From NCBI GenBank assembly GCA_013360695.1, contig JABWBC010000012.1, positions 1-42,506 on the forward strand: a stretch of 42,506 nucleotides of DNA, given 5' to 3'. The stretch comes from Phycisphaerales bacterium (GTDB lineage: Bacteria; Planctomycetota; Phycisphaerae; Phycisphaerales; UBA1924). Under the pieces are notes generated by a model. It made no database searches and was not told the origin of the DNA. It worked only from the letters and a program-made list of their open reading frames with translations. Positions 7,749 through 42,506 of this stretch are shown here, piece after piece. Numbering within the stretch: position 1 is the stretch's first letter; every line of letters starts with the position of its first letter. The position numbers and the translations under genes are program-made.

Positions 7749-7847
7749 AGCGCGAGTGTACACCAGTATGCATCAGATACGGTGGCAATTCATCAGACAT
7801 CGCCTTTGATTTGCATGTGCTCGTTCGGCGCTATGAACTAGAATGGG

Positions 7848-8834: not shown

Positions 8835-8841
8835 CGAGACC

Positions 8842-9645: not shown

Positions 9646-9700
9646 AATACGGCCCTTGATCGGTGCTCGTCTGGATCGACGGGCGTAGAAACCGCGAGCC

Positions 9701-9753: not shown

Positions 9754-9778
9754 GCCTCCGACGGCAGACAGGTGGATC

Positions 9779-10162: not shown

Positions 10163-10193
10163 GCGGATCGGAGAATTGAAGAATCGGTCGACA

Positions 10194-10220
10194 AACGCCC
10201 GGGAGCACCGGGCGTTTTTT
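10194..10220 (+). terminator. Rho-independent terminator of rplS
   Basis: A 9-bp stem AACGCCCGG (10194-10202) / CCGGGCGTT (10208-10216) with loop GAGCA runs into TTTTTT, 31 bp after the rplS stop. A purine-rich stretch follows at 10224-10290 (AAAGAGACG twice) with no coding signal. Confidence 0.9.
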
Positions 10221-10292
10221 CTTGTGAAAGAGACGAAGAGATAAAGAGACGGAGTGGCAGAGGGAGAGTCATGGAAACACAAGGAAGAGAAC

Positions 10293-10712: not shown

Positions 10713-10773
10713 CCCGCAATCGTACGTTTGCCAGCAGGTCCCTGTGCTGACCGGACTGATGGCGGCGTTGCTT

Positions 10774-11304: not shown

Positions 11305-11340
11305 GCGAGCAGGATACAGCGACAACGCGACGAATCCCCG

Positions 11341-11883: not shown

Positions 11884-12045
11884 ACGTGCCTCCGAGAATT
11901 GAAGGGTCCTTGGGACGGTCGATTCGTGGTGTCATGCTACCAGTCGGCCGCGTCGTGGACACCTCGCAATGGGATGGCCGGCTCCGGATTCCGCCGCCGA
12001 GCGAGCCGGGATGATGACGGCCGTCGACGCCGGTATTCTGCGGAC

Positions 12046-14049: not shown

Positions 14050-14069
14050 CCCTCGAGCGATCCGTGCGC

Positions 14070-14101
14070 GAAGCGGAGCGAGACTCGTGCCGCTCCGCTT
14101 C
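14070..14101. terminator. Bidirectional hairpin between convergent GH76 and patatin genes
   Basis: A perfect 11-bp stem GAAGCGGAGCG (14070-14080) / CGCTCCGCTTC (14091-14101) with a 10-nt loop lies in the 59-bp gap between two converging genes. The T-rich tail is weak (CTTTCG), so it is a probable rather than certain terminator. Confidence 0.65.
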
Positions 14102-14108
14102 CTTTCGA

Positions 14109-15308: not shown

Positions 15309-15525
15309 GTCAGTCTCCTCGTTCAACGAGGATACCGATTGCGACGGGACTTACAAGCCGATTCAGTGCACCTCCGACGACCGTTCTCTCAACGCGCCGC
15401 GTCGGCCTGAAGGCCTCAACCGCCGACCGAGACATCGCGGAGCAGCGCCGTCGCAAGATGTCAACGTCATCTCGGGCGGCTGCGGCGATCGCAGCGTCCG
15501 CAATCACCTCGAGCTGGTGCCCGCT
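15309..15525. other. Intergenic, no gene seen
   Basis: 217 bp between the patatin gene and the end of the rhamnose operon. It holds the patatin ribosome site and promoter and an imperfect hairpin near 15478-15500 (GCTGCGGCGATCGCAGC) without a T tract. Short open frames here look random. Confidence 0.5.
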
Positions 15526-17616
15526 TCAGAAGTCGAACTGATCGATGTTGCTCTTATCGAACGTGAACGGCGTGCCGAGCATCACGTTGTCTCCGACGAC
15601 GTCCTTGATTCCGAGCTTGCCAGCCTTGAGCTGCGATTGGCCCGGCTTCAGTTCGCCGCGGCAGATCGCGTTTGCGGCGTGGACCGCGAGGTATCCGAGG
15701 TCCATGGTGTTCCAGAGGACCACTCCGTCGGTGATGCCTTCCTTTACGAATCGCTTGTTGTCGTTGGGGAGCCCAAGCCCGATGACTTTGACGTCCTTGC
15801 GTCCGAGTTGCTTTACGGCCTCGGCGGCGCCGGGAACGCCCGGCGAGCAGATCGCCATGATGAGCTTCACATCGGGGTTCGAGTTGAGAATCGACGTCGT
15901 GACTTCGAACGCCTTGCTCTGCTGATCGTCGCAAGGCTGCACGCCCGCGAGCTTGATGTCGGGATACTTCTCCTTCAGACGAGTCTCGATGTGCTTGCGC
16001 CACTCGTTCTGATTGGCGGCGGTGAGCGACGCCGTAACGATCGCGAATTGGCCCTTGTTGTTGAGGAGGCGGGCGGCGTTGTCCATGAGCGTGTAGCCGA
16101 TGCCCTGGGGCGTCGCCTGGTTGACGAAGAAGTCGCGGGCGTCGGGCTCGGCGTCGGCGTCCCAGGTTACGACCTTGATGCCGCGCGAGCGGGCCTTGCG
16201 CAGCACGCCGGAGAGGGCCTCGCGATTCTCAACCGAGACAGCGATGACATCCACGCCGCGGGTGATCCAGGCATCGACGACCTCGCTCTGCTTGGCGGGG
16301 TCGGTTTCGGTCGGGCCGTCCCAGATCAGATCGATCCCGAGCTCCTTGGCCGCCTCTTCCGCGCCCTTTCGGCAGGCGATGAAGTACGCGTTGCCCTTGC
16401 TCTTGGGCATCATGGCGACGGTGAGCGGCTTGCGCGCGGGCTCGGGCGCTGGTTCCGCGGCACGAGCTGATAGATTCGGCGCGGACTTCGTTTCCGCGGC
16501 GTGGTCACGCGCCCCCTGGAACGATCGGGCGAGCATCCAATTGCTTCCCGCGACCAGCCCGGCCGCCACGAGGATCACGATGCACAACGCGGCCAACTGT
16601 GAGTTTTTCATATCAAGCTCCGAGACATCGGCGCGAGTGCTCGCGCCGGATACAGTCTGTTTTCCGGCACGATCCGCGGCGATGCTCGCCAGGAGCACGC
16701 CGCCCGTCAAGAGGCCGGCGAGTTCTGCCGGGGCGTCGGCCAATCGAACGCCATTCTGCAGAACCGCGATGGTGAAAAGACCAAGGAGGGTGCCCGCGAT
16801 GCTCCCGCGCCCGCCCGCGATGGAGGTCCCGCCGAGTACGACGGCGGTGATCGCCGAGAGTTCGTAGCCGCCCCCCGCGTCGGCCTTGGCCTGTCCGATG
16901 TGGGCGACATAGACGATGGACGCGACGCCCGCGGCCAGGCCGCTGAGCGTGTACGCGAGCGTGAGCGAACGTTCGACATCCACGCACGCGTGTCGCGTGG
17001 CGGATTCGGAGAAGCCGATCATGGTCCAGGTGCGTCCCGCGATCGCGCGGTGAACAAGCATCCAGAACACGATGGCGGCGACGATCAGGATGGGGAGTTG
17101 CGTGGGAACTACGCCGCCGAGATAGCCCTGACCGAGCGAGAGGAACCAACCGGGGAACCCGGTGACGGTGTCGACGCCGCGCGTGATGGCCTCTGCGCTC
17201 CCGCGGAAGAGCCAGAGCGTGCCGAGGGTGACGATGAGGGGTGGGATCTTGGCGCGCGTGACGAGCGTGGCGTTGAGGAGCCCACCGAGGCCGCCGACCG
17301 CGATGCCGGCGCCGGAGGCGAGCCAGAGCGGCCAACCCGCGTCGCGCCAGAGGAGGCCCATAACAACGGCGGAGAGCGCCATGAGCGCGCCGACCGAGAG
17401 ATCGATGCCGCCGGTCATGATGACGGGCGTCAGGGCGAGCGAGAGCAGGCCGAGTTCGACCGAGAGACGCCCGATTTCGAGGGCGTTCTGGGTCGTGAAG
17501 AAGTTCGTGCCGATCACGCCGAAGAACGCGACGAGAAGGGCGAGTGCGATCGACAGGAGCAGGCTGCGCGGGGCGGCACTCGTGAAGGCTCGCGTGCTGG
17601 TGGCCGGGCTGCTCAT
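15526..17616 (-). CDS. Fused CUT2 ABC permease / sugar (rhamnose-type) binding protein
   Basis: A 696-residue open frame joins two transporter parts. Residues ~1-330 are an RbsC-type permease (PVIMTGGIDLSVGALMALS, VLGGTSIAGGRGSIAGTLLG). At residue 336 Met begins a second membrane/signal segment (MKNSQLAALCIVILVAAGLVAG) and an Ala/Pro/Glu linker. An RbsB/RhaS-like binding fold follows from ~residue 390 (LTVAMMPKSKGNAYFIACRKG), with DVIAVSVENREAL, IKVVTWDADAEPD and a C-terminal GVVLWNTMDLGYL. The extra span would put the binding domain in the periplasm, tethered to the membrane. The start at ATG 17616 overlaps the upstream permease stop by 4 bp (ATGA). A good internal ribosome site precedes Met336, so separate binding protein may also be made. 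Last gene of the operon. Confidence 0.88.
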   Translation of the reverse strand: MSSPATSTRAFTSAAPRSLLLSIALALLVAFFGVIGTNFFTTQNALEIGRLSVELGLLSLALTPVIMTGGIDLSVGALMALSAVVMGLLWRDAGWPLWLASGAGIAVGGLGGLLNATLVTRAKIPPLIVTLGTLWLFRGSAEAITRGVDTVTGFPGWFLSLGQGYLGGVVPTQLPILIVAAIVFWMLVHRAIAGRTWTMIGFSESATRHACVDVERSLTLAYTLSGLAAGVASIVYVAHIGQAKADAGGGYELSAITAVVLGGTSIAGGRGSIAGTLLGLFTIAVLQNGVRLADAPAELAGLLTGGVLLASIAADRAGKQTVSGASTRADVSELDMKNSQLAALCIVILVAAGLVAGSNWMLARSFQGARDHAAETKSAPNLSARAAEPAPEPARKPLTVAMMPKSKGNAYFIACRKGAEEAAKELGIDLIWDGPTETDPAKQSEVVDAWITRGVDVIAVSVENREALSGVLRKARSRGIKVVTWDADAEPDARDFFVNQATPQGIGYTLMDNAARLLNNKGQFAIVTASLTAANQNEWRKHIETRLKEKYPDIKLAGVQPCDDQQSKAFEVTTSILNSNPDVKLIMAICSPGVPGAAEAVKQLGRKDVKVIGLGLPNDNKRFVKEGITDGVVLWNTMDLGYLAVHAANAICRGELKPGQSQLKAGKLGIKDVVGDNVMLGTPFTFDKSNIDQFDF
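16609..16621 (-). promoter_or_regulatory. Internal ribosome-binding site and ATG within the permease/binding-protein fusion
   Basis: On the minus strand GGAG (16621-16618) lies 6 nt before ATG 16611-16609, the Met that opens the signal-like segment of the binding domain. In frame these bases read Glu-Leu-Asp-Met. The spacing and the typical signal-sequence start suggest the site once began, or still begins, a separate binding-protein gene. Confidence 0.6.
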
Positions 17617-18545
17617 GCGCGGGACCTCCGCACCGAAACGTCGGCACCAACCGCGATCAGGATGATGAGCCCCTGGATCACGCGCTCCCACTGAGGCTGC
17701 ACGCCGAGGAAGACGAGCGCGGGCCCGATGATTGAAAGCAAGACCACGCCGAGGAGCATGCCGAGCATCGAGGCCCGACCTCCCGAGACCGCGGCGCCGC
17801 CGACGACCGCGGCCGCGATCGCTCGGAGCTCCAGCCCCGCGCCGGCACCGGGATCGATATCGCCGAATCGAACCGAAGCGAGGACGGCGGCGAGAGCGGC
17901 CGTAACCCCGCTGAGGACGAACACGCCGACGATCACGCGGGTTGGTCGGAGCCCAAGAAGACGAGCGGCCTCAGGATTGGAACCCACGAGGAAGACATCG
18001 CGCCCCGGTTGCGTGTGCCGTGCCGCCAGCGCGATCGCGACCCAGAACGCCAGAGCGGCGGCGACAACCGCTATCTGTCCGCTGGTCTGCGAGAGACCGA
18101 ACCACTGAAACCCCGCGGGGAGATTGTGAACGAACTCGCCCTCGCGCCACCAGCGGAGCAACTCGCGCCAGATGACCATCGTGCCGAGCGTGGCGACAAT
18201 TGCCGGGAGTTTCACCACGCCGACGAGCAGGCCATTGGTCAGGCCGAGGACGGCGCCGAGAACGATCGCGGCGAAGATCGCCAGTGGGATCGGCACGCCG
18301 GCGGTCACCATCATGCCCGCGCCGACGGCGCACAGGCTGAATTGCGACCCGATCGAGACATCGATCTGGCGTGTGACGATCACAAGAGTCGCGCCGATCG
18401 CGGCAACGAGGAGCGGGGCCGCGCCGACCACCATAGAGAGCACGTTCGCCAATTCGAAGAAGCTGGGGGCACGCCACGCCAGGAGCGCCAGCAGCACGCC
18501 GATCGCACCGAGCAGCGCGAGCGTTCTGGCCCATGTGGAGTTCAT
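17613..18545 (-). CDS. ABC sugar transporter permease, RbsC/CUT2 family (rhamnose operon)
   Basis: A 310-residue inner-membrane permease with the CUT2 signature ATLVIVTRQIDVSIGSQFSL and the loop VVGGAAVSGGRASMLGMLLG. It pairs with the permease half of the next gene, as RhaP/RhaQ pair in rhizobial rhamnose importers. ATG 18545 overlaps the ATPase stop by 4 bp and its own stop overlaps the fusion gene start by 4 bp, indicating translational coupling. The signature has RQID where most family members have GGID, a small deviation. Confidence 0.9.
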   Translation of the reverse strand: MNSTWARTLALLGAIGVLLALLAWRAPSFFELANVLSMVVGAAPLLVAAIGATLVIVTRQIDVSIGSQFSLCAVGAGMMVTAGVPIPLAIFAAIVLGAVLGLTNGLLVGVVKLPAIVATLGTMVIWRELLRWWREGEFVHNLPAGFQWFGLSQTSGQIAVVAAALAFWVAIALAARHTQPGRDVFLVGSNPEAARLLGLRPTRVIVGVFVLSGVTAALAAVLASVRFGDIDPGAGAGLELRAIAAAVVGGAAVSGGRASMLGMLLGVVLLSIIGPALVFLGVQPQWERVIQGLIILIAVGADVSVRRSRA

Positions 18546-20128
18546 GCCTCGCCCCCCACCGCGAGGGACATCACGCGTTCGGGCGTTGCATCGGCTCGTC
18601 CGAGCACGGCGACCAGACGACCGGCCCGCATCACGCCGACGCGGTCGCTCATCGCAAGCACTTCGCCCAGATCGGACGAGATCATGAGCACGCCGGCGCC
18701 GGCGCTGGCCATCTCGCGGATGATGCGGTGGATCTCGGCCTTGGCGGCGACGTCGACGCCCTGCGTCGGTTCGTCGAGGATCAAGATGCGCGGCTTTGCG
18801 GCGGCCCGCTGCGCGATCGCGACCTTCTGCTGATTCCCGCCCGACAAGGAAGAGACGAGCGCGTCCGGGGCCGGTGGACGCACGTCGAATCGCGCGATCG
18901 CATCCGACGCGGCGGCTCGCTCTCGCGACCGATCGATCAGCCCGAGGAGCGCAGCTTCGCGACCCGATCCCGACAGCGTCGCAGCGTTGACGTTCTCAAT
19001 GACGGTCATCTCGCCGATCACACCGTCGCGACGCCGGTCTTCGGGCAGATAGCCGATCCCGAGCCCCGATGCATCGAGCGGCGAGCGCACAGGGCATGCA
19101 CGCCCTTCAACGATCACCTGGCCGCTGTCGGCGGGCTCGTACCCGGCGATGGCGCGTGCCAACTCGGTCCGCCCCGAGCCGACGAGGCCCGCGACTCCAA
19201 GGACCTCGCCCGCGCGGATCTCGAGCGAGACATCGCGCACGCCGGACGCGGAACACGACAAGCCCTTCAACTCCAGGAGGGGCGAAGCGATCGCTGGGCG
19301 CTGCGATTCATCGCTCCCAGTCGCGTTGTCGGCGAAGGCGAGTGGAGCGGCAACGGCGTGCACGAACCCGCGACCAATCGCTGAAGCGACTACGGGCGCC
19401 GCGTACTCACGGCCCACCATGAGCGAGACGATCGCATCGCGCGAGAGCTCGCTCATCGCACGCGTCGCGACGCTTTGTCCATCGCGCAGCACGGTGATGC
19501 GATCGGCGATCGCGGGGAGTTCTTCGAGGCGGTGCGAGATGTAAACGATGGCCGCGTTCTGCTGCTTGAGCTTGCGGATCAGATTGAAGAGGCGATGCGC
19601 GTCGTCAACGCCCAGGCCCGCGGTCGGCTCGTCGAACAGGATGATCGACGCGTCGCCCGCGAGCGCCCGTGCGATCTCGACGAGCTGCTGCTGCGCGAAG
19701 GAGAGTCGCCCCGCTTCGGTCTCGGGCTCGACACGCGCGCCGATGCGATCGAGCACGTCCTTGGCCTTGCGTCGGCGCTCCGCGTGATCGATGAGGGTCA
19801 CCGCACGCCTTGACTCCCAGCCCATCGCGATATTCTCTGCGACCGAGACGTGCGGGAAGAGCGAGGGGTGCTGGTGGATCACGGCGATACCCATCGCCCG
19901 CATGGCGGCGGGGCTTGGGTCGCTGACAATCCGGCCGCGAACGCGAAGTTCGCCCGCGTCGGCGCGGAGTGCGCCGGCGACGATATTGATGAGCGTCGAT
20001 TTGCCCGCGCCGTTCTCGCCCACAAGGGCGTGGGCCTCGCCGGGGCGAACATCGAACGAGACATCCCGCAGAGCGCGAACCCCGCCGAAGGACTTGGACA
20101 GATTGGACAGCCTGAGCGCGTCCGGCAC
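18542..20128 (-). CDS. Sugar ABC transporter ATP-binding protein, RbsA/CUT2 type with two nucleotide-binding domains
   Basis: A 528-residue cytoplasmic ATPase driving the rhamnose importer. NBD1 has Walker A GENGAGKST at 37-45, LSFAQQQLVEIARAL (ABC signature region) and IILFDEPTAGL. NBD2 begins near LELKGLSCSASGVRDVSLEIRAG and has the degenerate first loop GLVGSGRTEL usual in RbsA, LSGGNQQKVAIAQ and ILILDEPTQGVDV. GTG 20128 has GGAGG 5 nt upstream and is preferred to GTG 20143. It begins 27 bp after rhaA. It is the only CUT2-type ATPase in the window and could also serve the orphan permease at 2762-3784. Confidence 0.92.
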   Translation of the reverse strand: MPDALRLSNLSKSFGGVRALRDVSFDVRPGEAHALVGENGAGKSTLINIVAGALRADAGELRVRGRIVSDPSPAAMRAMGIAVIHQHPSLFPHVSVAENIAMGWESRRAVTLIDHAERRRKAKDVLDRIGARVEPETEAGRLSFAQQQLVEIARALAGDASIILFDEPTAGLGVDDAHRLFNLIRKLKQQNAAIVYISHRLEELPAIADRITVLRDGQSVATRAMSELSRDAIVSLMVGREYAAPVVASAIGRGFVHAVAAPLAFADNATGSDESQRPAIASPLLELKGLSCSASGVRDVSLEIRAGEVLGVAGLVGSGRTELARAIAGYEPADSGQVIVEGRACPVRSPLDASGLGIGYLPEDRRRDGVIGEMTVIENVNAATLSGSGREAALLGLIDRSRERAAASDAIARFDVRPPAPDALVSSLSGGNQQKVAIAQRAAAKPRILILDEPTQGVDVAAKAEIHRIIREMASAGAGVLMISSDLGEVLAMSDRVGVMRAGRLVAVLGRADATPERVMSLAVGGEA

Positions 20129-22173: not shown

Positions 22174-23657
22174 CGCGTCGTCTCCCGCGTTCGACCGACC
22201 AACCGTCCCCAGCCTGGCTCGCTTCTGGGCGAGTACTCCATCGGCCGACACGACTTCCGAACGATTTCGCGCGCCTGCGCGAGCCCGGCAACCTCGCCGA
22301 TTCCCATCAACTGCACCATGACATTGCCCATCGCGGTCGCTTCGCTCGGGCCCGCGAGCACACGGCGGCCGGTCGCGTCCGCGGTCATCTGATTCAGCAG
22401 CGTGTTCTTCACTCCGCCGCCGACCAGGTGGATCGTGGCGATGGTTCGGCCCGTGATGCGCTCGACCTGTTCGATCGTCCGCGCGTAGGCGGCCGCGAGC
22501 CCTTCGAGGCACGCTCGCACGAGTTCGCCGGGGGTGGTCGGTTCGGGGTCGCCGGCCTCCCTCGCGAGCGACTGCACTTTCTTGATCATGTCGCCCGCGA
22601 GCGTCAGTTCCGGCGCGTCGACGTTGATCCGCGAACGGAACGGCGCGGCACGCTCGGCAAGAGCGGCGAGCTGCTCGTAGGTCATGTCCACGCCGCGGCG
22701 GGCCAGGTCGCGCTTGATCTCCTGCACGAGCCAGAGCCCGATGACGTTCTTCAGGAAACGGGTCGTGCCCGATACGCCGTGCTCGTTGGTGAACTCGGCG
22801 GCGCGGGCCTCGTCGCTGACGATCGCGCGATCGAGTTCAACACCCAGGAGCGACCAGGTGCCGCTGGAGAGATAGCAACTCTGCTCGCTCGAGAGAGGCG
22901 TGCCGACGACGGCGCTGGCGGTGTCGTGGGCGGCGGGCGCGACCACGCGGATGGAGGGCGAAAGGCCCGTATCGCGCGCGATCTCGGGAAGCAGCGGGCC
23001 GAGAACGCTGCCGGGCTGAACGATGTTGGGCAGGCTCTCGCGGGGCAGACCGATCGCTCGCAGCACGTCGCCCGACCAATCGCGGGTTTGGGCGTCGAGC
23101 AGTTGCGAGGTCGAGGCGATCGATTGCTCCGTACACGCGACGCCGCTCAGCATGAAGTGGAAGAGGTCGGGCATGAAGAGCAGTCGGCCCGTGGCCTGGA
23201 AAATCGACGGTTCGCGCGCGACCCAGCCGGCGAGTTGCGACGAGGTGTTCAAGGCCATGGAACGGATGCCCGTCAGGCCGTAGATCCCGGCCCGGCCGAG
23301 TTTGTCGTCAAGCAGGGCCAGGCCCTCGGCGTGTTCCGGATTGCGATAGCAGCGCGGCAGGGCGAGCAACGCCCCGTCCTTGCCGAGCAGGGCAAAGTCC
23401 ACGCCCCAGGTGTCGACGCCGACGCTTGCAATTTCCACGTCATGCTCATCCGCCCACGCCGCGGCACGTTTCAGCCCCTCGCGGATTTCACGCCAGATCA
23501 GAGGGAGGTCCCACGTAAGAGCGCCGGGCATGGGCGCCGGCGCGTGGAGAAAGCGGTGCGATTCGTGGAGCGAAAGTTCGCCCGTGCGAAGTACTCCGAT
23601 CATGACGCGCCCGGATTCCGCGCCAAGATCGATCGCGATGGACCCGCGTGCCGCCAA
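22170..23657 (-). CDS. rhaB: Rhamnulokinase
   Basis: Phosphorylates L-rhamnulose at O1 with ATP; a cytoplasmic FGGY-family kinase of 495 residues. Motifs are AIDLGAESGRVMIGV (ATP phosphate loop), VGVDTWGVDFALLG (catalytic Asp region), HDTASAVVGTPL, YLSSGTWSLLGVELD and HLVGGGVKNTLLNQMTADA, all shared with E. coli RhaB. The start is a TTG at 23657 with GGAG 8 nt upstream; no ATG or GTG fits upstream of the kinase motif. It lies 39 bp downstream of the bifunctional aldolase gene. Confidence 0.96.
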   Translation of the reverse strand: MAARGSIAIDLGAESGRVMIGVLRTGELSLHESHRFLHAPAPMPGALTWDLPLIWREIREGLKRAAAWADEHDVEIASVGVDTWGVDFALLGKDGALLALPRCYRNPEHAEGLALLDDKLGRAGIYGLTGIRSMALNTSSQLAGWVAREPSIFQATGRLLFMPDLFHFMLSGVACTEQSIASTSQLLDAQTRDWSGDVLRAIGLPRESLPNIVQPGSVLGPLLPEIARDTGLSPSIRVVAPAAHDTASAVVGTPLSSEQSCYLSSGTWSLLGVELDRAIVSDEARAAEFTNEHGVSGTTRFLKNVIGLWLVQEIKRDLARRGVDMTYEQLAALAERAAPFRSRINVDAPELTLAGDMIKKVQSLAREAGDPEPTTPGELVRACLEGLAAAYARTIEQVERITGRTIATIHLVGGGVKNTLLNQMTADATGRRVLAGPSEATAMGNVMVQLMGIGEVAGLAQAREIVRKSCRPMEYSPRSEPGWGRLVGRTRETTR

Positions 23658-35960: not shown

Positions 35961-36386
35961 ATGCAGAAGAACGCCGCCGCACTCACCCCCGCCACGCTCG
36001 TCGCGCTCGCCGCGCTCGCTACCCCGCTCGGATCGTCCGCCCGCGCCGGCGAGTTGGTGTACGGCGTGACGGAGAACCAGACGCTGATCTCGTTCGACTC
36101 GAACGCGCCGACGACGATCCTGTCGGGCGTCGCGATCTGGGGCATGGCCGCCAACGAGCAGGTGCGTGGGCTGGACTTCCGCCCCGCCACCAACGAGCTC
36201 TACGCGCTCGGCTCCTTCAGCATGCTCTACAAGATCAACGCCATGACCGGCATGGCGATGCAGGTTGGCTCCGGCACGTTCGCGCACACGCTCAACGGGT
36301 CGTCGTTCGGGTTTGACTTCAACCCCGTCATCGATCGCATCCGCGTCGTGAGCGAGGCCGACCAGAACCTCGTTCTCCACCCCGAC

Positions 36387-36405
36387 ACCGCCGCCGGCCA
36401 AAGTG
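36387..36405. other. Chromosome/plasmid junction
   Basis: DUF4394 homology ends at ~36389 and a plasmid reading frame in another phase is coding from ~36397-36400 on. GC-rich CCGCCGGCC at the boundary could be shared microhomology. Everything to the right is IncP-1-like plasmid DNA. Confidence 0.75.
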
Positions 36406-36519
36406 CAGCAGCCGGCCAGGCCCGCGCTGTCCGAGCTGGAACAGCGCGAGGCGCGGCTACGGGCGCAGATGGAAGCCAAGAAGGCGAAACGCCAGGAGGG
36501 CAAGAAGCGCGGGCGATGA
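36391..36519 (+). pseudogene. 3' fragment of a plasmid gene (basic helical C-terminus)
   Basis: In the frame ending TGA 36517-36519 the last ~40 codons read as a charged helical tail: KVQQPARPALSELEQ, then REARLRAQMEAKKAKRQEG and KKRGR. That is typical of the C-terminus of a plasmid relaxase, replication or DNA-binding protein. The gene's start and body lie beyond the junction and are absent. It precedes trbJ by 238 bp. In RP4 trbI precedes trbJ, but this tail does not resemble TrbI, so identity is left open. Confidence 0.6.
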
Positions 36520-36557
36520 CGCTTGCGAATTCTCGGATGTTCGATTAGCATCCGAGT

Positions 36558-36585
36558 TAGCAGCTAGAAGCTATATAGCAGCTAG
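36558..36585. repeat. Repeated TAGCAGCTAG around a GCTATATAGC palindrome
   Basis: TAGCAGCTAG occurs at 36558-36567 and 36576-36585, around the perfect palindrome GCTATATAGC (36570-36579), in an AT-rich stretch (36536-36600) of otherwise GC-rich DNA. The TAGC-N-GCTA core resembles a degenerate KorB operator. It may be a regulatory or promoter region for the trb genes. Confidence 0.55.
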
Positions 36586-36757
36586 TTAGCTTACACCGAT
36601 GTTCAACAAAAATGGCCGGGCGCAACGGTGTCGCTCAGGTCGGGTACCGGGACAACGATTCGGCGTGTTGTCTCTGTGATGGCCCAACGCCGCCAGTTTG
36701 CCGAAAAGGCAGCAGGCCGGCGCAGCGCAGCCGCTCATCACATCGAGGTACTCGACC

Positions 36758-37531
36758 ATGAAACACGTCCGCCTTTTAGCGGCTAAAACCGCGCTCGCCG
36801 CTGCCCTGGCCGGCAGCATCATCATCACCCCGGCGCAGGCCGGCATTCCCGTCATCGACGGCGGCAACCTGGTGCAGAACATCATGTCTGCGATGGAAGC
36901 GGTCGCCCAAACTGCCAAGCAAATTCAGCAGTACCAGACCCAATTGCAGCAGTACGAAAACATGCTGCAAAACACGATGGCCCCGGCGGCCTATATCTGG
37001 GATCAGGCGCAGTCCACGATCAACGGGCTGATGAATGCCGTCGATACGCTCAGCTACTACGAGCGGCAGCTTGGCAGCCTTGATAGTTACCTGGGCAAGT
37101 TCCAGGACGTGGCCTATTACCGTGGTTCGCCGTGCTTCTCGTCCGCCGGTTGCTCGGATGCCGAGTGGGCCGCGATGGATGAAAACCGCCGCCTGGCCAG
37201 CGAGAGCCAGAAGAAGGCGAACGACGCGCTGTTTAAGGGCTTGAAGGATCAACAGCGCAACCTTACCGCCGATGCGCGCCAGCTCGAACGGCTCCAGGCG
37301 GCCGCGCAGGGCGCGGATGGCCAGATGCAGGCCATCGGCTTCGCCAACCAGCTCGCCGCCAACCAGGCAAACCAGCTTCTGCAAATCCGTGGCCTGCTGA
37401 TCGCCCAGCAGAACGCCGTGACGACCAGGATGCAGGCCGAGGCCGACCGCGAGGCCCAGCAGCAGGCCGCCCGTGATTCGATTTTCGACATGGGCGCAAA
37501 GACGAACCGCAGCAAGGCCAAGGGGTACTGA
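36758..37531 (+). CDS. trbJ: Conjugal transfer protein TrbJ (VirB5-like)
   Basis: A 257-residue periplasmic/pilus-tip component of the IncP mating-pair-formation system. A signal peptide (MKHVRLLAAK...TPAQA) is followed by GIPVIDGGNLVQNIM, a coiled-coil TAKQIQQYQTQLQQYENMLQNT, and the core APAAYIWDQAQST, YLGKFQDVAYY, SPCFSSAGCSDAEWAAMDENRRLASESQKKANDALFKGL. This matches RP4 TrbJ in order and length. ATG 36758 gives the signal peptide. Codons 6-9 contain an exact KorB operator. The last 18 residues resemble those of TrbK. Confidence 0.94.
   Translation: MKHVRLLAAKTALAAALAGSIIITPAQAGIPVIDGGNLVQNIMSAMEAVAQTAKQIQQYQTQLQQYENMLQNTMAPAAYIWDQAQSTINGLMNAVDTLSYYERQLGSLDSYLGKFQDVAYYRGSPCFSSAGCSDAEWAAMDENRRLASESQKKANDALFKGLKDQQRNLTADARQLERLQAAAQGADGQMQAIGFANQLAANQANQLLQIRGLLIAQQNAVTTRMQAEADREAQQQAARDSIFDMGAKTNRSKAKGY
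36774..36788. promoter_or_regulatory. KorB-type operator inside trbJ
   Basis: TTTTAGCGGCTAAAA is a perfect palindrome around one G. Its core TTTAGCGGCTAAA (36775-36787) equals the IncP-1 KorB operator consensus TTTAGC(G/C)GCTAAA. KorB is the IncP-1 partition and global repressor protein. The site lies in trbJ codons 6-10 (Leu-Leu-Ala-Ala-Lys) and ties the segment to an IncP-1-type backbone. Confidence 0.8.
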
Positions 37532-37536
37532 CATGA
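37487..37536 (+). repeat. Direct repeat copy 1, 3' end of trbJ
   Basis: This stretch encodes DMG..TNRSKAKGY and the TGA, then ACATGA. It is closely matched by 37675-37715 at the end of trbK. The repeat includes the stop codon and the start of the next gene. Confidence 0.75.
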
Positions 37537-37709
37537 AGAACATGCTTCGTACAGCCGCCTTGATCGCCCTGGCGTCGGCTCTGGTCGCCGGGTGCGGGAA
37601 AACCGAGGACGAGAAGCTGAACAAGAGAACGCCGGAGCAACAGCAGCAGGCCGACAAGCTCTATGACATGGGCGAGCCGACCGACCGCAGCAAGAGCAAG
37701 GGGTACTGA
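37533..37709 (+). CDS. trbK: Entry-exclusion lipoprotein TrbK
   Basis: A 58-residue small lipoprotein: signal MKNMLRTAALIALASALVAGC with lipobox VAGC, so a mature protein of only ~38 residues anchored at Cys21. In IncP plasmids TrbK blocks entry of related plasmids and lies between trbJ and trbL, as here. The mature part is hydrophilic (KTEDEKLNKRTPEQQQQADKL) and ends DMGEPTDRSKSKGY, nearly the end of TrbJ. ATG 37533 directly follows the trbJ stop (TGACATG); the stop is 2 nt before trbL. Confidence 0.85.
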   Translation: MKNMLRTAALIALASALVAGCGKTEDEKLNKRTPEQQQQADKLYDMGEPTDRSKSKGY

Positions 37710-37715
37710 CCATGA
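37675..37715 (+). repeat. Direct repeat copy 2, 3' end of trbK
   Basis: Partner of 37487-37536: GACATGGGCG, then CCGCAGCAAG, CAAGGGGTACTGAC and ATGA. The identity at codon level points to a recent partial duplication of the gene end. Confidence 0.75.
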
Positions 37716-39304
37716 GATACCTACTGCTGCGCCTGGCGGTCTTGCTGTCGGTGCTGCTGGTGTCTCAAACAGCATCAGCGGCGATAGATCAAAGCGGCGT
37801 GCTCGATGAAGTGGCGGATCGCTTCATGACGCAAAGCGCGACATGGGGCACGACGATTACCACCTATGCCACCTGGTTGTTCTGGACGTTGGTTGTGATC
37901 TCGATGGTCTGGACGTTCGGCATGATGGCCTTGCGCAAGGCCGACATTGGCGAGTTCTTCGCGGAGCTTGTCCGCTTCACCATCTTCACCGGCTTTTTCT
38001 GGTGGCTGTTGGAAAACGGGCCGAGCTTCGCAATGGATATCGTCAATTCGTTGCGTGACATAGGGGCCGCTGCCGGTGGCGTCACGCGAACGCTGACGCC
38101 ATCCACACCCCTAGACATAGCCTTCGACATCATCGTGAAGGCGGGCAAGAGCTACAGCATCCTGCACCCCATCGACAACCTGGCGATTTTTCTCACAACG
38201 CTGGCGATCCTAGCGTGCATGGCCGTAGTCGCTGCGAACGTGCTGCTGGCCCTCGTCACTGCGTGGGTGATGGCCTATGCCGGAATCTTCGTGCTTGGCT
38301 TCGGCGGTGCGCGCTGGACTTCCGATATAGCGATCAACTACTTCCGGGCGGTCGCCGGCATTGCCCTCAAGCTGATGACTATGACGCTGTTGATCGGCGT
38401 GGCGGTGGCGGTGATGGACGGGTTTCACGCCGACTTGCAGGAAGGCGCACCGATGCGCGAGCTGCTGGTGATCTTTGTTGTTGCCCTCGTCCTGGTCGTT
38501 CTCATCCACTCGATCCCGAACGTCATTGCTGGGCTGATTCCAGGCGGCGGTCAGGCGGCCAGTTCGGGTAGTTCGTTCAGTGCGGGAGCTATCGCCGGCG
38601 CGGCAGTTGGTGCCGGTGCGGCCGTGGCGTCTGGCGGCGCGGCTTTGGCCGCTGGCGGCGCTGCCGCGACTGGTGGAGCGCAGGCCCTGATGGCAGCAGT
38701 CCGAGCCGGTCAAGCGAATGTTTCTGCCGGTACGGACAGCGTTTCAAGCCTCATGAGCGCGTTCCGTGGCGCTGGCGAATCTGCTGGATCGTTCTCTGAT
38801 GCGGCGGGCTTTGGTGGCGGAAGTGGCAGCAGCGGCGGCAGTGCTGGCACCAGCACCCCGCTTGCGCAGGCGGCAGGCTTCGGCGGAAGTGGTGCCGGCA
38901 GCAGCTCGAAGGGCGGTGGTCAGAGCCAGGCCAAGAGCGCCCAGGATGGCGGGAACAAGGCGAGCGCGGGCACCAGCAAGACCCAGCAAAGCAGCACAGG
39001 TGCATCGAGTGGCGACGGCGCGGGCGGCTTCTTGGCTTCTGCGGCCAAGGCCGGAAAGGTAGCTGTAGAAGCTGGTTCGATCCTGGCCCAGCACGCGGCC
39101 AGCAGCATCGGTGATGCTGCGCAGGAGCGCATCGGCCAGACCTCCGGGGGGAAGCTCGCAGCCGCGATTCGGGCAAGCAGCCAGAAAGAACAGGTGGCCG
39201 AGGACGTGCCGACCTTCGGCGACAACAGCCTGGCGGCGGCCGATTCTGATGATGAAGTAGCCGCGTTCGCCAACCGCGACCGCAACAGCGACAAGGAGGT
39301 ATGA
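37712..39304 (+). CDS. trbL: Conjugal transfer protein TrbL (VirB6-like)
   Basis: A 530-residue polytopic inner-membrane channel component of the IncP type IV secretion system. Signal-like start, then SGVLDEVADRFMTQSATWGTTITTYATWLFWTLVVISMVWTFG (RP4 TrbL-like), KADIGEFFAELVRFTIFTGFFWWLL, VLGFGGARWTSDIAINYFR and about six spans by residue ~280. The C-terminal 250 residues are a Gly/Ser/Ala-rich low-complexity tail, as in TrbL. The ATG lies just after the trbK stop; the TGA overlaps the next ATG (ATGA). Confidence 0.95.
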   Translation: MRYLLLRLAVLLSVLLVSQTASAAIDQSGVLDEVADRFMTQSATWGTTITTYATWLFWTLVVISMVWTFGMMALRKADIGEFFAELVRFTIFTGFFWWLLENGPSFAMDIVNSLRDIGAAAGGVTRTLTPSTPLDIAFDIIVKAGKSYSILHPIDNLAIFLTTLAILACMAVVAANVLLALVTAWVMAYAGIFVLGFGGARWTSDIAINYFRAVAGIALKLMTMTLLIGVAVAVMDGFHADLQEGAPMRELLVIFVVALVLVVLIHSIPNVIAGLIPGGGQAASSGSSFSAGAIAGAAVGAGAAVASGGAALAAGGAAATGGAQALMAAVRAGQANVSAGTDSVSSLMSAFRGAGESAGSFSDAAGFGGGSGSSGGSAGTSTPLAQAAGFGGSGAGSSSKGGGQSQAKSAQDGGNKASAGTSKTQQSSTGASSGDGAGGFLASAAKAGKVAVEAGSILAQHAASSIGDAAQERIGQTSGGKLAAAIRASSQKEQVAEDVPTFGDNSLAAADSDDEVAAFANRDRNSDKEV

Positions 39305-39573
39305 CGATGACGCCAAGAGGATTTTTCGACTGCCTGGACGTTGCCGCTGCCGATCCGCGCCAGGCGCAGACGGTTGAGGTTGAGCCGGTTGGCGATCAAT
39401 CAGCCGAGCTTGATGCAGCGGCGGAAGTGGCGGTCTTCGTTGATCGCCCTGCCCCGTCTGCCGTCGAGGCCACCAGGCCGGCGGCCAGGTCATCGAGCAA
39501 CAGCTACAGCGGCAGCAACAGGAACACGCCGCTGGCCGAGGCCGCCGGCATCTACAGCAGCGGCCAGCGATAA
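39301..39573 (+). CDS. Small plasmid protein, 90 aa, unknown function
   Basis: ATG 39301 overlaps the trbL stop; a second in-frame ATG is at 39307. The protein is acidic then Ser/Asn-rich (MTPRGFFDCLDVAAADPRQ, later SSSNSYSGSNRNTPLAEAAG) with no signal or span. It sits where RP4 carries trbM but does not resemble TrbM, which is about twice as long. Coupling to trbL suggests a role in transfer or in the same transcript. Function not known. Confidence 0.65.
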   Translation: MTMTPRGFFDCLDVAAADPRQAQTVEVEPVGDQSAELDAAAEVAVFVDRPAPSAVEATRPAARSSSNSYSGSNRNTPLAEAAGIYSSGQR

Positions 39574-39578
39574 AGCGC

Positions 39579-39599
39579 GCCGGCCGGCGTGGGGCCGGC
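39579..39599. terminator. GC-rich hairpin without U tract
   Basis: GCCGGCC (39579-39585) pairs with GGCCGGC (39593-39599) over a 7-nt loop between two small genes. There is no T run, so it may be an mRNA stabiliser rather than a terminator. Confidence 0.35.
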
Positions 39600-39636
39600 C
39601 GACACTTCCACAACCCACCTACCACAGAGGTGAATC

Positions 39637-39870
39637 ATGGCAACTTTGAATCCTACCAATGCAATCGCAACCCAGGCAGTCCATCATGCGGCCGCGCAGC
39701 TCGCGGCCCTGGACTGGATCGACCAAGAGGCGGCGCGGCAGCTCTCGCCGATGGCGGAAGCCGTCGCCAACATGTTCATGGTGCTGTACTACCAGGCCGA
39801 GACGGGCCAGGCCACACGGGACGATTTCCGCCAGGCACTGGACGCGGTGCGGCAGTCACTCACCGCGTAG
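39637..39870 (+). CDS. Small plasmid protein, 77 aa, helical
   Basis: ATG 39637 follows GAGGTG at 39626-39631. The protein is Ala/Gln-rich and predicted helical (HHAAAQLAALDWIDQEAARQ, AEAVANMFMVLYYQAETGQ, DDFRQALDAVRQSLTA). No family is recognised. Its last codons (CACTCACCGCGTAG) are the start of a ~70-bp direct repeat that recurs after ohrR, so the ohr module seems to have been inserted at this gene end. Confidence 0.65.
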   Translation: MATLNPTNAIATQAVHHAAAQLAALDWIDQEAARQLSPMAEAVANMFMVLYYQAETGQATRDDFRQALDAVRQSLTA

Positions 39871-39926
39871 GCTCCACCAGAAACAGCAAGGGCGGCCAGT
39901 GGCCGCCCTTGTTGTTTCCGGGCCTG
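39857..39926. repeat. Direct repeat copy 1 flanking the ohr module
   Basis: 70 bp from the last codons of the 77-aa gene through its terminator to GGGCCTG. Copy 2 (40953-41025) matches it with a 3-nt indel and about four substitutions. The pair brackets ohr and ohrR exactly. Confidence 0.85.
39887..39911. terminator. Terminator hairpin, copy 1
   Basis: CAAGGGCGGCC / GGCCGCCCTTG with loop AGT, an 11-bp perfect stem, followed by TTGTTT. It ends the transcript of the small plasmid genes. Confidence 0.8.
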
Positions 39927-39972
39927 TACCGTCGGCAACGGCGTGCTGCACTTGACGTGCATGCGGGAATTG

Positions 39973-40008
39973 TTGACACAATAATATTGTTCACAATATT
40001 ATTGTGTC
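39973..40008 (+). promoter_or_regulatory. ohr promoter and OhrR operator
   Basis: TTGACA (39973-39978) is followed after 18 nt by TATTAT (39997-40002). Across it lies a perfect 34-bp palindrome: GACACAATAATATTGT (39975-39990), TC, then its reverse complement (39993-40008). This suits OhrR, a MarR-type dimer that represses ohr until its Cys is oxidised by organic hydroperoxide. The AT-rich block contrasts with its surroundings. Confidence 0.85.
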
Positions 40009-40029
40009 TCACATAATGGAGATGATTCG

Positions 40030-40458
40030 ATGAGCGCACTTCTATACAGCACGAAGGTCACGGCAATCGGCGGCCGTGCCGGAACCATCAAGAGTGACGA
40101 CGGCTTGCTTGATCTTCCACTGGCCCTTCCCAAGGCGCTTGGTGGCAAAGGGGGTGCGACCAACCCCGAACAATTGTTCGCGGCCGGTTATGCCGCCTGC
40201 TTCGAGAATGCCGTGATCCATGTGACGCGGGCGGCGGTCGAGAAGGTGAAGGACGATGACATTATTGTGGTGGCCACGGTCGGGATGCAGCCAAACGGCG
40301 CGGGCGGTTTTGCGTTGACCGTCGCGCTCGACGTGACGATCACCGGCCTCAATCAGGAAGCGGCCGAGGAAGTCGTTGCGAAGGCGCATGCGGTCTGCCC
40401 CTATTCGAACGCAGTAAAGGGCAACATCGACGTAGCCATCACAGTCGCGACGAACTGA
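40030..40458 (+). CDS. ohr: Organic hydroperoxide resistance protein Ohr
   Basis: A 142-residue thiol peroxidase (OsmC superfamily) that reduces organic, notably lipid, hydroperoxides to alcohols in the cytoplasm. The peroxidatic Cys57 is in GYAACFENA, the resolving Cys123 in HAVCPYSNA; Arg16 (GGRAG) and Glu47 (NPEQLFAAG) complete the active site. Length and motif order are standard for Ohr rather than OsmC. Start ATG 40030, GGAGA 7 nt upstream. It is first gene of a two-gene unit with ohrR under a palindromic operator. Confidence 0.96.
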   Translation: MSALLYSTKVTAIGGRAGTIKSDDGLLDLPLALPKALGGKGGATNPEQLFAAGYAACFENAVIHVTRAAVEKVKDDDIIVVATVGMQPNGAGGFALTVALDVTITGLNQEAAEEVVAKAHAVCPYSNAVKGNIDVAITVATN

Positions 40459-40469
40459 GAACGAAGAAC

Positions 40470-40943
40470 ATGGACTTGCCGGAAGATGGCGACCCTCTGG
40501 ACCTTGATAGGCAGGTCTGCTTTCCTCTCTATGCCGCCTCGAACTTGCTCAATCGGCTGTATCGGCCGATTCTCGCCGAGCTGGGCCTTACCTATCCGCA
40601 GTATCTAGTGATGCTGGTGCTCTGGAAGCAGACACCCCAGACGGTCGGGTCACTCGGCGACATGCTCTATCTCGATAGCGGCACGCTGACGCCGCTGCTC
40701 AAGCGGATGGAAACGACGGGACTGATCAGCCGCACACGTGACGCCGGGGACGAACGACGCGTGTTGATCGATGTGACGGCGAAAGGCCGCGCCTTGCGGT
40801 CAGCTGCTGAAAATGTGCCCGCCGTTCTGGCGGCGGGCATCGAGATCGACGCAACGTCCGTGGCTCAGTTACGCGATCAGGTTCGCGGTCTTGTTGCGAT
40901 TCTCCACGGTGACTCTAAGAATGCGGACACAGCTTCATCATAG
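40470..40943 (+). CDS. ohrR: Organic-peroxide-sensing repressor OhrR (MarR family)
   Basis: 157 residues. The sensor Cys17 sits in the classic N-terminal helix (RQVCFPLYAASNLL). The winged helix (TPQTVGSLGDMLYLDSGTLTPLLKRMETTGLISRTRDAGDERRVLIDVTAKG) is MarR/OhrR-typical. Only this one Cys is present, so it is a 1-Cys type needing a thiol for its oxidised state (as in B. subtilis) rather than an intramolecular disulfide. It starts 11 nt after ohr. It should bind the 34-bp palindrome and so also repress itself. Confidence 0.95.
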   Translation: MDLPEDGDPLDLDRQVCFPLYAASNLLNRLYRPILAELGLTYPQYLVMLVLWKQTPQTVGSLGDMLYLDSGTLTPLLKRMETTGLISRTRDAGDERRVLIDVTAKGRALRSAAENVPAVLAAGIEIDATSVAQLRDQVRGLVAILHGDSKNADTASS

Positions 40944-40952
40944 AGCAGAAGG

Positions 40953-41025
40953 CACTCACCGCGTAGGCTCGCGCACCAGGAACAGCAAGGGCGGCCGGTG
41001 GCCGCCCTTGTCGTTTTCGGGCCTG
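40953..41025. repeat. Direct repeat copy 2 flanking the ohr module
   Basis: 73-bp partner of 39857-39926; it carries the CACTCACCGCGTAG end of the small plasmid gene although no such gene precedes it here. It is therefore a leftover duplicated gene end. Confidence 0.85.
40986..41016 (+). terminator. Terminator hairpin, copy 2, after ohrR
   Basis: CAAGGGCGGCC / GGCCGCCCTTG with loop GGT, then TCGTTTT; the same stem as copy 1. It would terminate ohr-ohrR transcription. Confidence 0.8.
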
Positions 41026-41175
41026 CATCGCCGTTTCCGATGATGCGCGCCGGCGTTCTCGAGCATCGCCAGATCGAGCGATGACGGCCGCCCTGTCCTT
41101 TCCCTTGGCGTGGATCTCGCATCGTCATTTCCGGCGATGAGATCCACCTGCAGCACCGCCAGAAATGGCGATGCT
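41025..41175. repeat. Four 23-bp imperfect palindromic repeats
   Basis: Units at 41025-41047, 41063-41085, 41119-41141 and 41153-41175 share GCAYCGYC at one end and YGATG near the other, each able to fold (for example CATCGC/GCGATG in the second). The third extends to TGGATCTC/GAGATCCA. They lie between ohrR and the toxin-antitoxin genes and resemble REP-type or operator/iteron arrays; function unknown. Confidence 0.65.
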
Positions 41176-41183
41176 GGCCAGCC

Positions 41184-41534
41184 CTACCCTTCCAGGCCGT
41201 GCATGGCCCTGGCCTGCGCCGCAACTTCGCGGGCGTGCTGGATATAGGCCGGGTCGGCCGTGGTTTCGGCATCGGCCAGGAACGCAGCTATAGCTTCGGC
41301 GGTTTGCAAATCCTCGGGCAGCAGCTCACGGCCAACGGCCGGGGCATCGACCCATTCGCGTTGCTCAGGCGGCAATGGATACTGGCCGGATGCTTCGGCT
41401 TCGGCCAGCAGTTCATCGAGCGTGTAGCGCACCTGGTCAGCCGTGACGGCGCGGGCCGGGTCGGCCTTCAATGCGTCATAGGCCGGGCCAGCTTTCTCAT
41501 GCAGCCAGCTTTCCAGGTTCTTCGGGTCGGTCAT
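41184..41534 (-). CDS. Possible addiction-module antidote-like protein, 116 aa
   Basis: Two parts can be seen. The N-terminal half (LESWLHEKAGPAYDALKAD, then RAVTADQVRYTLDELLAEA) resembles the stretch common in type II antitoxins preceding ParE/RelE toxins. The C-terminal half (DLQTAEAIAAFLADAETTADPAYIQHAREVAAQARAM) resembles the start of HigA-like addiction antidote proteins, but the helix-turn-helix that should follow is missing; the protein ends HGLEG. It is last gene of a four-gene operon; its ATG overlaps the previous stop (ATGA). Assignment is by pattern only. Confidence 0.6.
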   Translation of the reverse strand: MTDPKNLESWLHEKAGPAYDALKADPARAVTADQVRYTLDELLAEAEASGQYPLPPEQREWVDAPAVGRELLPEDLQTAEAIAAFLADAETTADPAYIQHAREVAAQARAMHGLEG

Positions 41535-41701
41535 CGGCGGGCCTTATCGAGCCAGGCCAGCGTTTCAGCATCGCGGGCGGCTACGCGGGCCAGCAGCTCG
41601 CGCAGCAGCGCGGCCATGCTCATGCCGTGCGCGGCCGAGATAGCGGCAGCTTCGGCCTTCACGGCCGCCGGTACGGCGGCGCTCACGGTCTTGGTGGTCA
41701 T
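41531..41701 (-). CDS. Small putative ribbon-helix-helix protein, 56 aa
   Basis: The frame from ATG 41701 to TGA 41531 reads MTTKTVSAAVPAAVKAEAAA, ISAAHGMSMAALLRELLARV, then AARDAETLAWLDKARR. A short beta-strand start, two helices and the AALLRELLARVAA segment fit a CopG/RHH-type DNA-binding fold found in antitoxins. It overlaps the ParE-like toxin stop by 1 nt (TGATG) and the next gene by 4 nt. It may be a second antitoxin paired with the 116-aa protein. Confidence 0.65.
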   Translation of the reverse strand: MTTKTVSAAVPAAVKAEAAAISAAHGMSMAALLRELLARVAARDAETLAWLDKARR

Positions 41702-41994
41702 CAGTAGCCCGCCTCTTTCTGGTGCCGGAAGGCCAGAACATACACCGCATCGTCGGCCGGTTCGTGGCGGTACAGGGCCACATAGCCGGAATCCCCGAAG
41801 GCAATCACCAGCTCGCGCAGCTCGGGCATTTCAGGGAACGGCCGGCCAATGTCCGGGGCCGTCTCCAGCAGCAGGAATTGCCGCTCGATGGCCTGGCCGG
41901 CACGCCTGGCGGCGTCCGGTGCCTTGACGGCCAGGAACCGCCGGCATCGTTCCAAGCCTTCCGCCGCGCCTTCGGTGACGATTACTTGTGGCAC
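41701..41994 (-). CDS. parE: Type II toxin, ParE/RelE superfamily
   Basis: 97 residues with the ParE/RelE scaffold: VIVTEGAAEGLERCRRFL helix, AARRAGQAIERQFLLLETAPDIGRPFPEMPELRELVIAFGDSGYVALYRHEPADDAVYVLAFRHQKEAGY, where strand YVALYRH and the end VYVLAFRHQKEAG are diagnostic. ParE members poison gyrase; RelE members cut mRNA; sequence favours ParE but does not prove it. It overlaps the upstream antitoxin gene by 13 bp, the usual arrangement. Confidence 0.85.
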   Translation of the reverse strand: MPQVIVTEGAAEGLERCRRFLAVKAPDAARRAGQAIERQFLLLETAPDIGRPFPEMPELRELVIAFGDSGYVALYRHEPADDAVYVLAFRHQKEAGY

Positions 41995-42254
41995 TCAGGC
42001 ACCGCCCTTTCGTCATTGGTGCCCCAGGTGTTCAACCAGGTGCGAACTTCCTGGCCGGTCAGGTGGCGGCCGGTTTCCTTGTAGGCCGCCCAGGACGCCA
42101 AGGCTTCCTGCTTGAAGCTCTCGCGGGCTTCTTCGCGCTCGACGTACTGCTGGATCGCTTCGAGCATGATCCAGTGGGGCGAGCGGCGGCGCTGGCTGGC
42201 GAGGTGCTGGACGCGGCCTTTCAGCGTGTCGTCGATCTTGAGAGACGTTGCCAT
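41982..42254 (-). CDS. parD: Type II antitoxin, CopG/ParD-like ribbon-helix-helix
   Basis: 90 residues. The N-terminal RHH (MATSLKIDDTLKGRVQHLASQRRRSPHWIMLEAIQQYVEREEARE) dimerises and binds the promoter; the flexible C-terminus (FKQEALASWAAYKETG) neutralises the toxin. GAGG lies 6-7 nt before ATG 42254. It is first gene of the operon, with an inverted repeat 11 bp upstream of the start as a likely autoregulatory operator. The module would stabilise the plasmid. Confidence 0.85.
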   Translation of the reverse strand: MATSLKIDDTLKGRVQHLASQRRRSPHWIMLEAIQQYVEREEARESFKQEALASWAAYKETGRHLTGQEVRTWLNTWGTNDERAVPECHK

Positions 42255-42264
42255 AGTGGGCCTC

Positions 42265-42291
42265 TTATCACGTGGTAATACTTAGTGATAA
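42265..42291. promoter_or_regulatory. Putative operator of the toxin-antitoxin operon
   Basis: TTATCAC (42265-42271) and GTGATAA (42285-42291) are exact inverted repeats 13 bp apart, with a further GTGGTA half-site between, directly upstream of parD in an AT-rich segment. This is the usual position of an RHH antitoxin binding site. Confidence 0.65.
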
Positions 42292-42408
42292 TAAACCTTC
42301 CATGCCCCCGAGTCCATCGCGCTGAAACTGTCTTGAAAAGGCTCTTTAAGGCTGGTGTTTTGAGCTAGGCGCATATAGATCGTTCTTTGATAAATGAGCC
42401 TTCCGGGC

Positions 42409-42506
42409 TGTCGTTTTCAGAAGACGGCTGCACTGAACGTCAGAAGCCGACTGCACTATAGCAGCGGAGGGGTTGGATCCATCAGGCAACGACGGGCTGC
42501 TGCCGG
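42409..42506. mobile_element. Class 1 integron, outer end of 5' conserved segment (IRi)
   Basis: From 42409 the sequence is the Tn402-type inverted repeat IRi (TGTCGTTTTCAGAAGACGGC...) and the adjoining 5'-CS, including the GGATCC at 42475-42480 and the stretch to CGGGCTGCTGCCGG at the window end. intI1 would follow beyond the edge, reading back toward IRi. The flanking 5 bp CGGGC (42404-42408) would be the target duplication. Recognised from memory of the well-known 5'-CS; no mismatch was noticed. Confidence 0.93.

What the first reader, a model, noticed from the sequence alone, without database searches (positions are those of the whole stretch)
42404..42506. Class 1 integron inserted beside the TA locus
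IRi starts at 42409 and the 5'-CS runs to the window end, so a gene-cassette array, commonly antibiotic resistance, should follow. Tn402-type elements favour res/par regions of plasmids, fitting the position next to parDE-like genes and AT-rich DNA.
Basis: established knowledge. Interest (0 to 1): 0.5.

Follow-up and report, generated by a model that had tools for sequence, protein, structure and literature searches.

The report
Transposon end on a misjoined contig
The last 98 bases are the standard outer end of a Tn402-type transposon, the kind that usually carries antibiotic-resistance integrons, in a known hotspot of a Pseudomonas-type plasmid; the piece stops too early to show an integron, and that plasmid fragment was most likely joined to a planctomycete chromosome by mistake during assembly.

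Summary
A perfect 25-bp IRi lies at 42409-42433, opening 98 bp identical to the outer edge of the class 1 integron 5'-CS, in the res region beside a parDE-like toxin-antitoxin pair.

The naming goes too far. The same head (101 bp) also opens Tn6008-like Tn402-family transposons without intI1. The nearest plasmid found, P. aeruginosa pF010_2, is identical over 36377-42408 and carries such an element in the same res site, 3 bp away. The window ends 3 bp before the two kinds part. No integron integrase in the bin reaches the family cut-off. By base rate a class 1 integron is still the likeliest continuation (about 0.7).

The context is also not what it seems. Window 1-36376 is chromosome of a Phycisphaerales MAG. 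The plasmid starts inside traI at 36377 and cuts a host DUF4394 gene that is whole in two of three same-genus genomes, at a short shared word. It was not found in 60 related genomes and is compositionally foreign. This is most likely an assembly chimera, though no reads could be checked.

The res site is a known hotspot; four other insertion points were seen in relatives. Ordinary; low interest.

The parts
42409..42433 (+). IRi, 25-bp terminal inverted repeat of a Tn402-family element
   Evidence: exact single occurrence; same 25 bp at the integron edge of fetched plasmids
42409..42506 (+). 98-bp outer head shared by class 1 integron 5'-CS and Tn6008-like transposons
   Evidence: at least 5000 plasmid records match the stretch that holds it; pF010_2 element and an aadB integron are identical for 101 bp from IRi
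42404..42408 (.). CGGGC, presumed 5-bp target copy; its partner is not in the window
   Evidence: junction compared with empty and occupied sites
42255..42408 (.). res-type intergenic region, left part; a resolvase gene follows in relatives
   Evidence: GC 46.8%. That it works as res is inferred from position
41982..42254 (-). CopG/ParD-like antitoxin
   Evidence: PF01402
41701..41994 (-). ParE-family toxin
   Evidence: PF05016
41184..41534 (-). small gene of the same cluster, annotated 'transcriptional regulator' in pF010_2
   Evidence: annotation of the identical stretch; no Pfam hit
40030..40458 (+). OsmC/Ohr organic hydroperoxide resistance protein
   Evidence: PF02566; annotation in pF010_2
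40470..40943 (+). MarR-family regulator
   Evidence: PF01047
37712..39304 (+). trbL
   Evidence: PF04610
36758..37531 (+). trbJ (name from pF010_2 annotation)
   Evidence: identical stretch annotated trbJ in pF010_2; no Pfam hit
36377..36519 (+). 3' end of the traI relaxase gene; the plasmid begins here, mid-gene
   Evidence: exact match to pF010_2 starts at 36377; traI annotated there
36377..36399 (.). junction zone between host chromosome and plasmid (short shared word)
35961..36395 (+). 5' part of a host DUF4394 gene (profile positions 1-103 of 230) cut by the plasmid junction; whole in two of three same-genus genomes
   Evidence: PF14339
1..36376 (.). chromosomal DNA of a Phycisphaerales MAG (ABC sugar transporters, penicillin amidase, LUD/LutB)

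Best explanation
[quoted passage not shown] Shown: the IRi, the 98-bp head, the plasmid backbone and the exact insertion point. Inferred: beyond the edge lies most likely a class 1 integron (about 0.7), otherwise a Tn6008-like transposon without intI1 (about 0.2) or another relative. The mechanism is inferred from the family: TniA-driven transposition into a res site, giving a 5-bp target duplication. Also inferred: the plasmid piece does not belong to the host of the rest of the window but was joined to a Phycisphaerales chromosome contig by misassembly at a short shared word. The contig stops 99 bases into sequence that also stands behind other flanks elsewhere, the same length at which several other contigs of this bin overlap.
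For: IRi and head. Plasmid identity: 6032 bp from 36377 identical to pF010_2. Insertion-site map with two empty sites; resolvase gene beside the site: PF00239 in X. cucurbitae and pMRCP1333, a closely similar ORF in pF010_2. Class 1 integrons with 337-aa IntI1 in 4 of 10 fetched relatives. Base rate in E. coli: 1847 of 2146 records that match a 300-bp class 1 edge cover at least 80% of it, against 2 of 1870 for the Tn6008-type edge. Chimera: DUF4394 gene cut after profile position 103 of 230 but whole in two same-genus genomes; plasmid not found in 60 relatives beyond matches of 51 bases or less; rest of the plasmid not found in the bin; tetranucleotide distance of the plasmid part exceeds all 212 chunks of 6 kb from 133 contigs of the bin. 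Contig end: 42408-42506 is 99 bases shared with pF010_2, and 3 pairs of contig ends in the bin share exactly 99 bases.
Against: The nearest plasmid found, pF010_2, carries a Tn6008-like element and no IntI1 hit, which weakens the class 1 reading; pMRCP1333, with an IRi one base from pF010_2's point, also gives no IntI1 hit. No integron integrase in the bin reaches the cut-off. For the chimera: no reads or coverage are available, and real integration with the far junction unbinned is not excluded, as the bin is 89% complete. The shared word is short in the congeners (14 bases in one, 11 in the other), and the host's own continuation is not known. In the relatives search only the 4 best candidates per genome were scored. 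Contig-end overlaps other than 99 also occur (73, 40, 37, 19, 16), and neither end of the window itself overlaps another examined end.
Confidence: 0.82

Rival explanations
1. The element is a Tn6008-like Tn402-family transposon (AraC regulator, carboxymuconolactone decarboxylase, tniR/Q/B/A) without any integron, as in pF010_2; the 3-bp difference at the junction is a small deletion or a separate insertion.
For: pF010_2 is identical to the window over 6032 bp and carries this element in the same res site; the heads are identical for 101 bp, so the window cannot separate the two; 33 plasmid records among the 5000 kept hold at least 80% of the 401-bp Tn6008-type edge.
Against: The window's insertion point differs by 3 bp from pF010_2's, which has a GCTAC duplication, so the two look like independent insertions; Tn6008-type edges are rare against class 1 edges in E. 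coli (2 of 1870 against 1847 of 2146 matching records cover at least 80%).
Confidence: 0.2
2. The plasmid with its transposon is really integrated in the planctomycete chromosome by illegitimate recombination at short homology inside traI.
For: A single contig joins both parts; the bin is incomplete, so the other junction could be missing.
Against: Junction mid-gene in both partners at a short shared word; rest of the plasmid not found in the bin; not found in 60 relatives; sequence identical to a P. aeruginosa plasmid over 6032 bp; DNA that lies beyond the cut gene in a congener is on another contig, C208, although C208 does not carry the missing half, so this fits either account.
Confidence: 0.05
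3. The contig is correctly joined but as a whole was placed in the wrong bin.
For: Contamination of the bin is given as 4.25%.
Against: Window 1-36000 has bin-like composition in all six 6-kb chunks, its gene at 35961 is 96% and 87% identical in two of three same-genus genomes, and its LutB-like protein is 92% identical to a Phycisphaerales MAG; only the part after 36377 is foreign.
Confidence: 0.02

Closest known systems
Class 1 integrons between phd and resolvase genes of pMATVIM-7-family MOBP11 plasmids (PMC9501424, abstract and passages seen)
   Same: Same plasmid backbone family and variable region; IRi in the same orientation in pMATVIM-7
   Different: Window insertion point is 3 bp upstream; intI1 and cassettes not seen; window backbone has an ohr-marR insert
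Tn6008-like element of pF010_2 (Tn6008 described within Tn6006 on pOP-I, PMC5460862, passages and one section seen)
   Same: Identical first 98 bp, same res site, backbone identical over 6032 bp
   Different: pF010_2 insertion has target GCTAC, window has CGGGC; interior of the window element unknown
Tn5053/Tn402 'res site hunter' transposons (PMC7765201, passages seen)
   Same: 25-bp terminal repeat; insertion in a res region beside a resolvase gene
   Different: Only one end is visible; tni genes, second end and target duplication are not in the window

Membership tests
Class 1 integron | IRi and outer part of the 5'-CS | tested here: met
   98 bp identical; not specific, shared with Tn6008-like elements
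Class 1 integron | intI1 | tested here: inconclusive
   window ends before intI1; no hit above the 265-bit cut-off in the bin, best 79.4 bits, and all 14 control genomes give sub-cut-off hits too; best tblastn hit in the fetched part of the bin 31% identity
Class 1 integron | attI1 and gene cassettes | not testable with these tools
   beyond the contig end; 42300-42506 finds only itself in the bin
Tn402/Tn5053 family | 25-bp terminal inverted repeat | tested here: met
   exact at 42409-42433; one end only
Tn402/Tn5053 family | insertion in a res region next to a resolvase gene | tested here: met
   homologous empty site beside a PF00239 resolvase gene in X. cucurbitae; same in pMRCP1333; the gene itself is beyond the window
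Tn402/Tn5053 family | 5-bp target duplication | not testable with these tools
   right end missing; duplications seen in pF010_2, pSE5381-aadB and pMATVIM-7
Tn402/Tn5053 family | tniA, tniB, tniQ, tniR | not testable with these tools
   beyond the contig end; pF010_2 DNA carrying tni finds in the bin only the two window edges
Tn6008-like element | AraC regulator directly inside IRi | not testable with these tools
   window stops 3 bp before the two kinds diverge

The most novel reading that the evidence does not exclude
A P. aeruginosa-type mobilizable plasmid carrying a Tn402-type (possibly resistance-integron) element has really entered and integrated into a planctomycete (Phycisphaerales) chromosome, which would extend the reach of such plasmids to another phylum.
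Probability: 0.04. Interest if true: 0.6.

Novelty: already known. Interest (0 to 1): 0.1.

Why it matters
It is a caution for resistance surveys. A perfect IRi/5'-CS edge of about 101 bp or less does not prove an integron, and a MAG contig can present a clinical-type plasmid as if it belonged to an environmental planctomycete. It also adds one insertion point (CGGGC) at a known res hotspot.

Tried and rejected
Exact-junction pattern (33 bases across the insertion point) in genome contigs and viral contigs: 0 matches each. Integron integrase model against the own genome: five hits, all below cut-off, and all 14 control genomes give sub-cut-off hits as well. Search for the missing half of the cut host gene in the bin: not found; DNA that lies beyond it in a congener is on contig C208. 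Wrong-bin explanation for the whole contig: set aside because of composition and congeners. pF010_2 as direct parent of the insertion: not accepted, because the target differs by 3 bp; a 3-bp deletion remains possible. A resolvase match for the pF010_2 ORF at 12959-13567: no Pfam hit; the resolvase-like ORF there is the unannotated 11802-12713, not itself scanned. Papers on planctomycete MAGs and chimeric contigs: listing only, nothing used.

Full report
What is there. The window ends in a perfect 25-bp IRi (42409-42433), the only copy in the window at up to 5 mismatches. With it begin 98 bp identical to the outer edge of class 1 integrons.

What it sits in. From 36377 to 42408 the window is identical over 6032 bp to one of the two copies of this region in plasmid pF010_2 of P. 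aeruginosa (NZ_CP115282.1), typed as mobilizable. The genes are the end of traI, trbJ, trbL, a ptaRNA1-family toxin, ohr and marR, small regulators, a ParE toxin and a CopG-type antitoxin. The insertion lies in the AT-richer region upstream of the antitoxin gene. In X. cucurbitae the same region is empty and runs into a 322-aa ORF with a resolvase domain (PF00239). In pMRCP1333 the annotated resolvase also hits PF00239, and pF010_2 has a closely similar, unannotated 303-aa ORF just past the right end of its element.

Insertion points. 42262-42408 is found in 20 plasmid records. I compared the junction in nine of them, in pMATVIM-7 and in the window: 11 sequences. Two are empty (X. cucurbitae, X. 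citri) and nine are occupied. Three are occupied after ..GGGCTAC (pF010_2, pSE5381-aadB, pZYPA187) and pMATVIM-7 at the matching place after ..GGACTAC. pMRCP1333 is occupied one base further. E. asburiae is occupied after ..GCATATAG. Acidovorax p3-T1 and X. perforans share a point after ..GCATAT, with the other end of the element leading. The window is occupied after ..CCGGGC, a point not seen in the other ten. Target duplications GCTAC, GCTAC and ACTAC are seen in pF010_2, pSE5381-aadB and pMATVIM-7. A 33-base pattern across the window's junction has no match in two collections. The site is a hotspot, which fits the behaviour described for res site hunters (PMC7765201, passages). Resistance genes between phd and resolvase genes are described for this plasmid family (PMC9501424, abstract and passages).

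Is it a class 1 integron? IntI1 (337 aa, 100%) is found in the fetched stretches of 4 of 10 plasmid relatives: pSE5381-aadB, pMATVIM-7, pZYPA187 and E. asburiae. It gives no hit in pF010_2 (whole record) or in the fetched stretches of pMRCP1333, Acidovorax p3-T1, X. perforans and the two empty ones. pF010_2 carries instead, behind the same head, an AraC regulator, a carboxymuconolactone decarboxylase, an IS5 transposase, a recombinase, TniQ, TniB and the DDE transposase. On pOP-I the AraC/decarboxylase stretch (95% of the query, 99.8% identity; annotation) lies in the part where a paper places Tn6008 with ahpD (PMC5460862, passages and one section). That the pF010_2 element is Tn6008-like is my inference from this; that ahpD is the decarboxylase-family gene is recalled. 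The pF010_2 head and a class 1 head are identical for 101 bp from IRi, and the window has 98 of them, so the window cannot tell the two apart. Base rates favour class 1: among E. coli records, 1847 of 2146 that match a 300-bp class 1 edge cover at least 80% of it, against 2 of 1870 for the Tn6008-type edge. Rates in the unknown source sample may differ. No integron integrase in the bin reaches the family cut-off.

The host. The window is contig C186 of a 3.84-Mb, 228-contig bin, 89% complete. Window 1-20000 has only two plasmid matches, of 70 bases or less. All 25 listed plasmid hits of 17600-42408 begin at 36377 (292 further records not listed). The left part codes for sugar ABC transporters, a penicillin amidase and a LUD/LutB protein; the last is 92% identical to a Phycisphaerales MAG protein. 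The gene at 35961 is a DUF4394 gene (PF14339) that covers only profile positions 1-103 of 230 before the plasmid begins. It is 96% and 87% identical in two of three same-genus genomes, where ORFs of 311 and 302 aa run through, the first covering the profile to position 229. The exact plasmid match starts at 36377. Congener G003 follows the window closely to about 36370 and loosely to 36395; congener G002 aligns to 36401 and shares a 14-base word with the plasmid there, G003 an 11-base word. The join is thus at a short shared word, about 14-23 bp by my reading; the host's own continuation is not known. The plasmid stretch is in none of 60 relatives beyond matches of at most 51 bases in six of them (the four best candidates per genome were scored). 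The rest of pF010_2 finds in the bin only the two window edges. The tetranucleotide distance of the plasmid part is larger than that of all 212 chunks of 6 kb from 133 contigs of the bin. The most likely account is a misassembly at a short shared word. Real integration is not excluded without reads.

Why the contig stops there. 42408-42506 is 99 bases that pF010_2 shares exactly. Among 247 contig ends examined, of 456, three pairs share exactly 99 terminal bases, one as a joining overlap and two converging; the other five joining overlaps of 15 or more are 73, 40, 37, 19 and 16, and neither end of the window overlaps another examined end. This fits an assembler word of 99 and a transposon head that stands behind more than one flank in the sample. 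It is an inference.

Verdict. A real, ordinary Tn402-family end in a known plasmid hotspot; class 1 integron likely but not shown; its genomic context is most likely an assembly artefact.

Noticed in passing
window 36377: Sharp host/plasmid junction inside traI; most likely a chimeric contig, so the plasmid genes in this bin should not be assigned to the planctomycete.
   Followed up: yes
window 39854-39934 and 40950-41033: The ohr-marR insert is flanked by imperfect direct repeats of 81-84 bp holding a palindrome; in four fetched relatives the two flanks lie about 50 bases apart with one repeat copy and no insert.
   Followed up: partly
L010 (NZ_CP115282.1), record ends: The deposited pF010_2 is nearly a head-to-tail dimer (repeat distance 23236-23237) but seems to lack about 1.7 kb at the joint; the record ends about 43 bases past the traI position where the window's plasmid part begins. 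Dimer with deletion or assembly artefact is open.
   Followed up: partly
L043 (pMRCP1333) 6148-6591: A qacF/aac(6')-31/blaIMP-1 array stands behind an IRi one base from the usual point, with no IntI1 hit.
   Followed up: no
G000 contig C70 about 478-1215 (L216): A recombinase about 31% identical to IntI1 over 267 aa, below the integron integrase cut-off.
   Followed up: no
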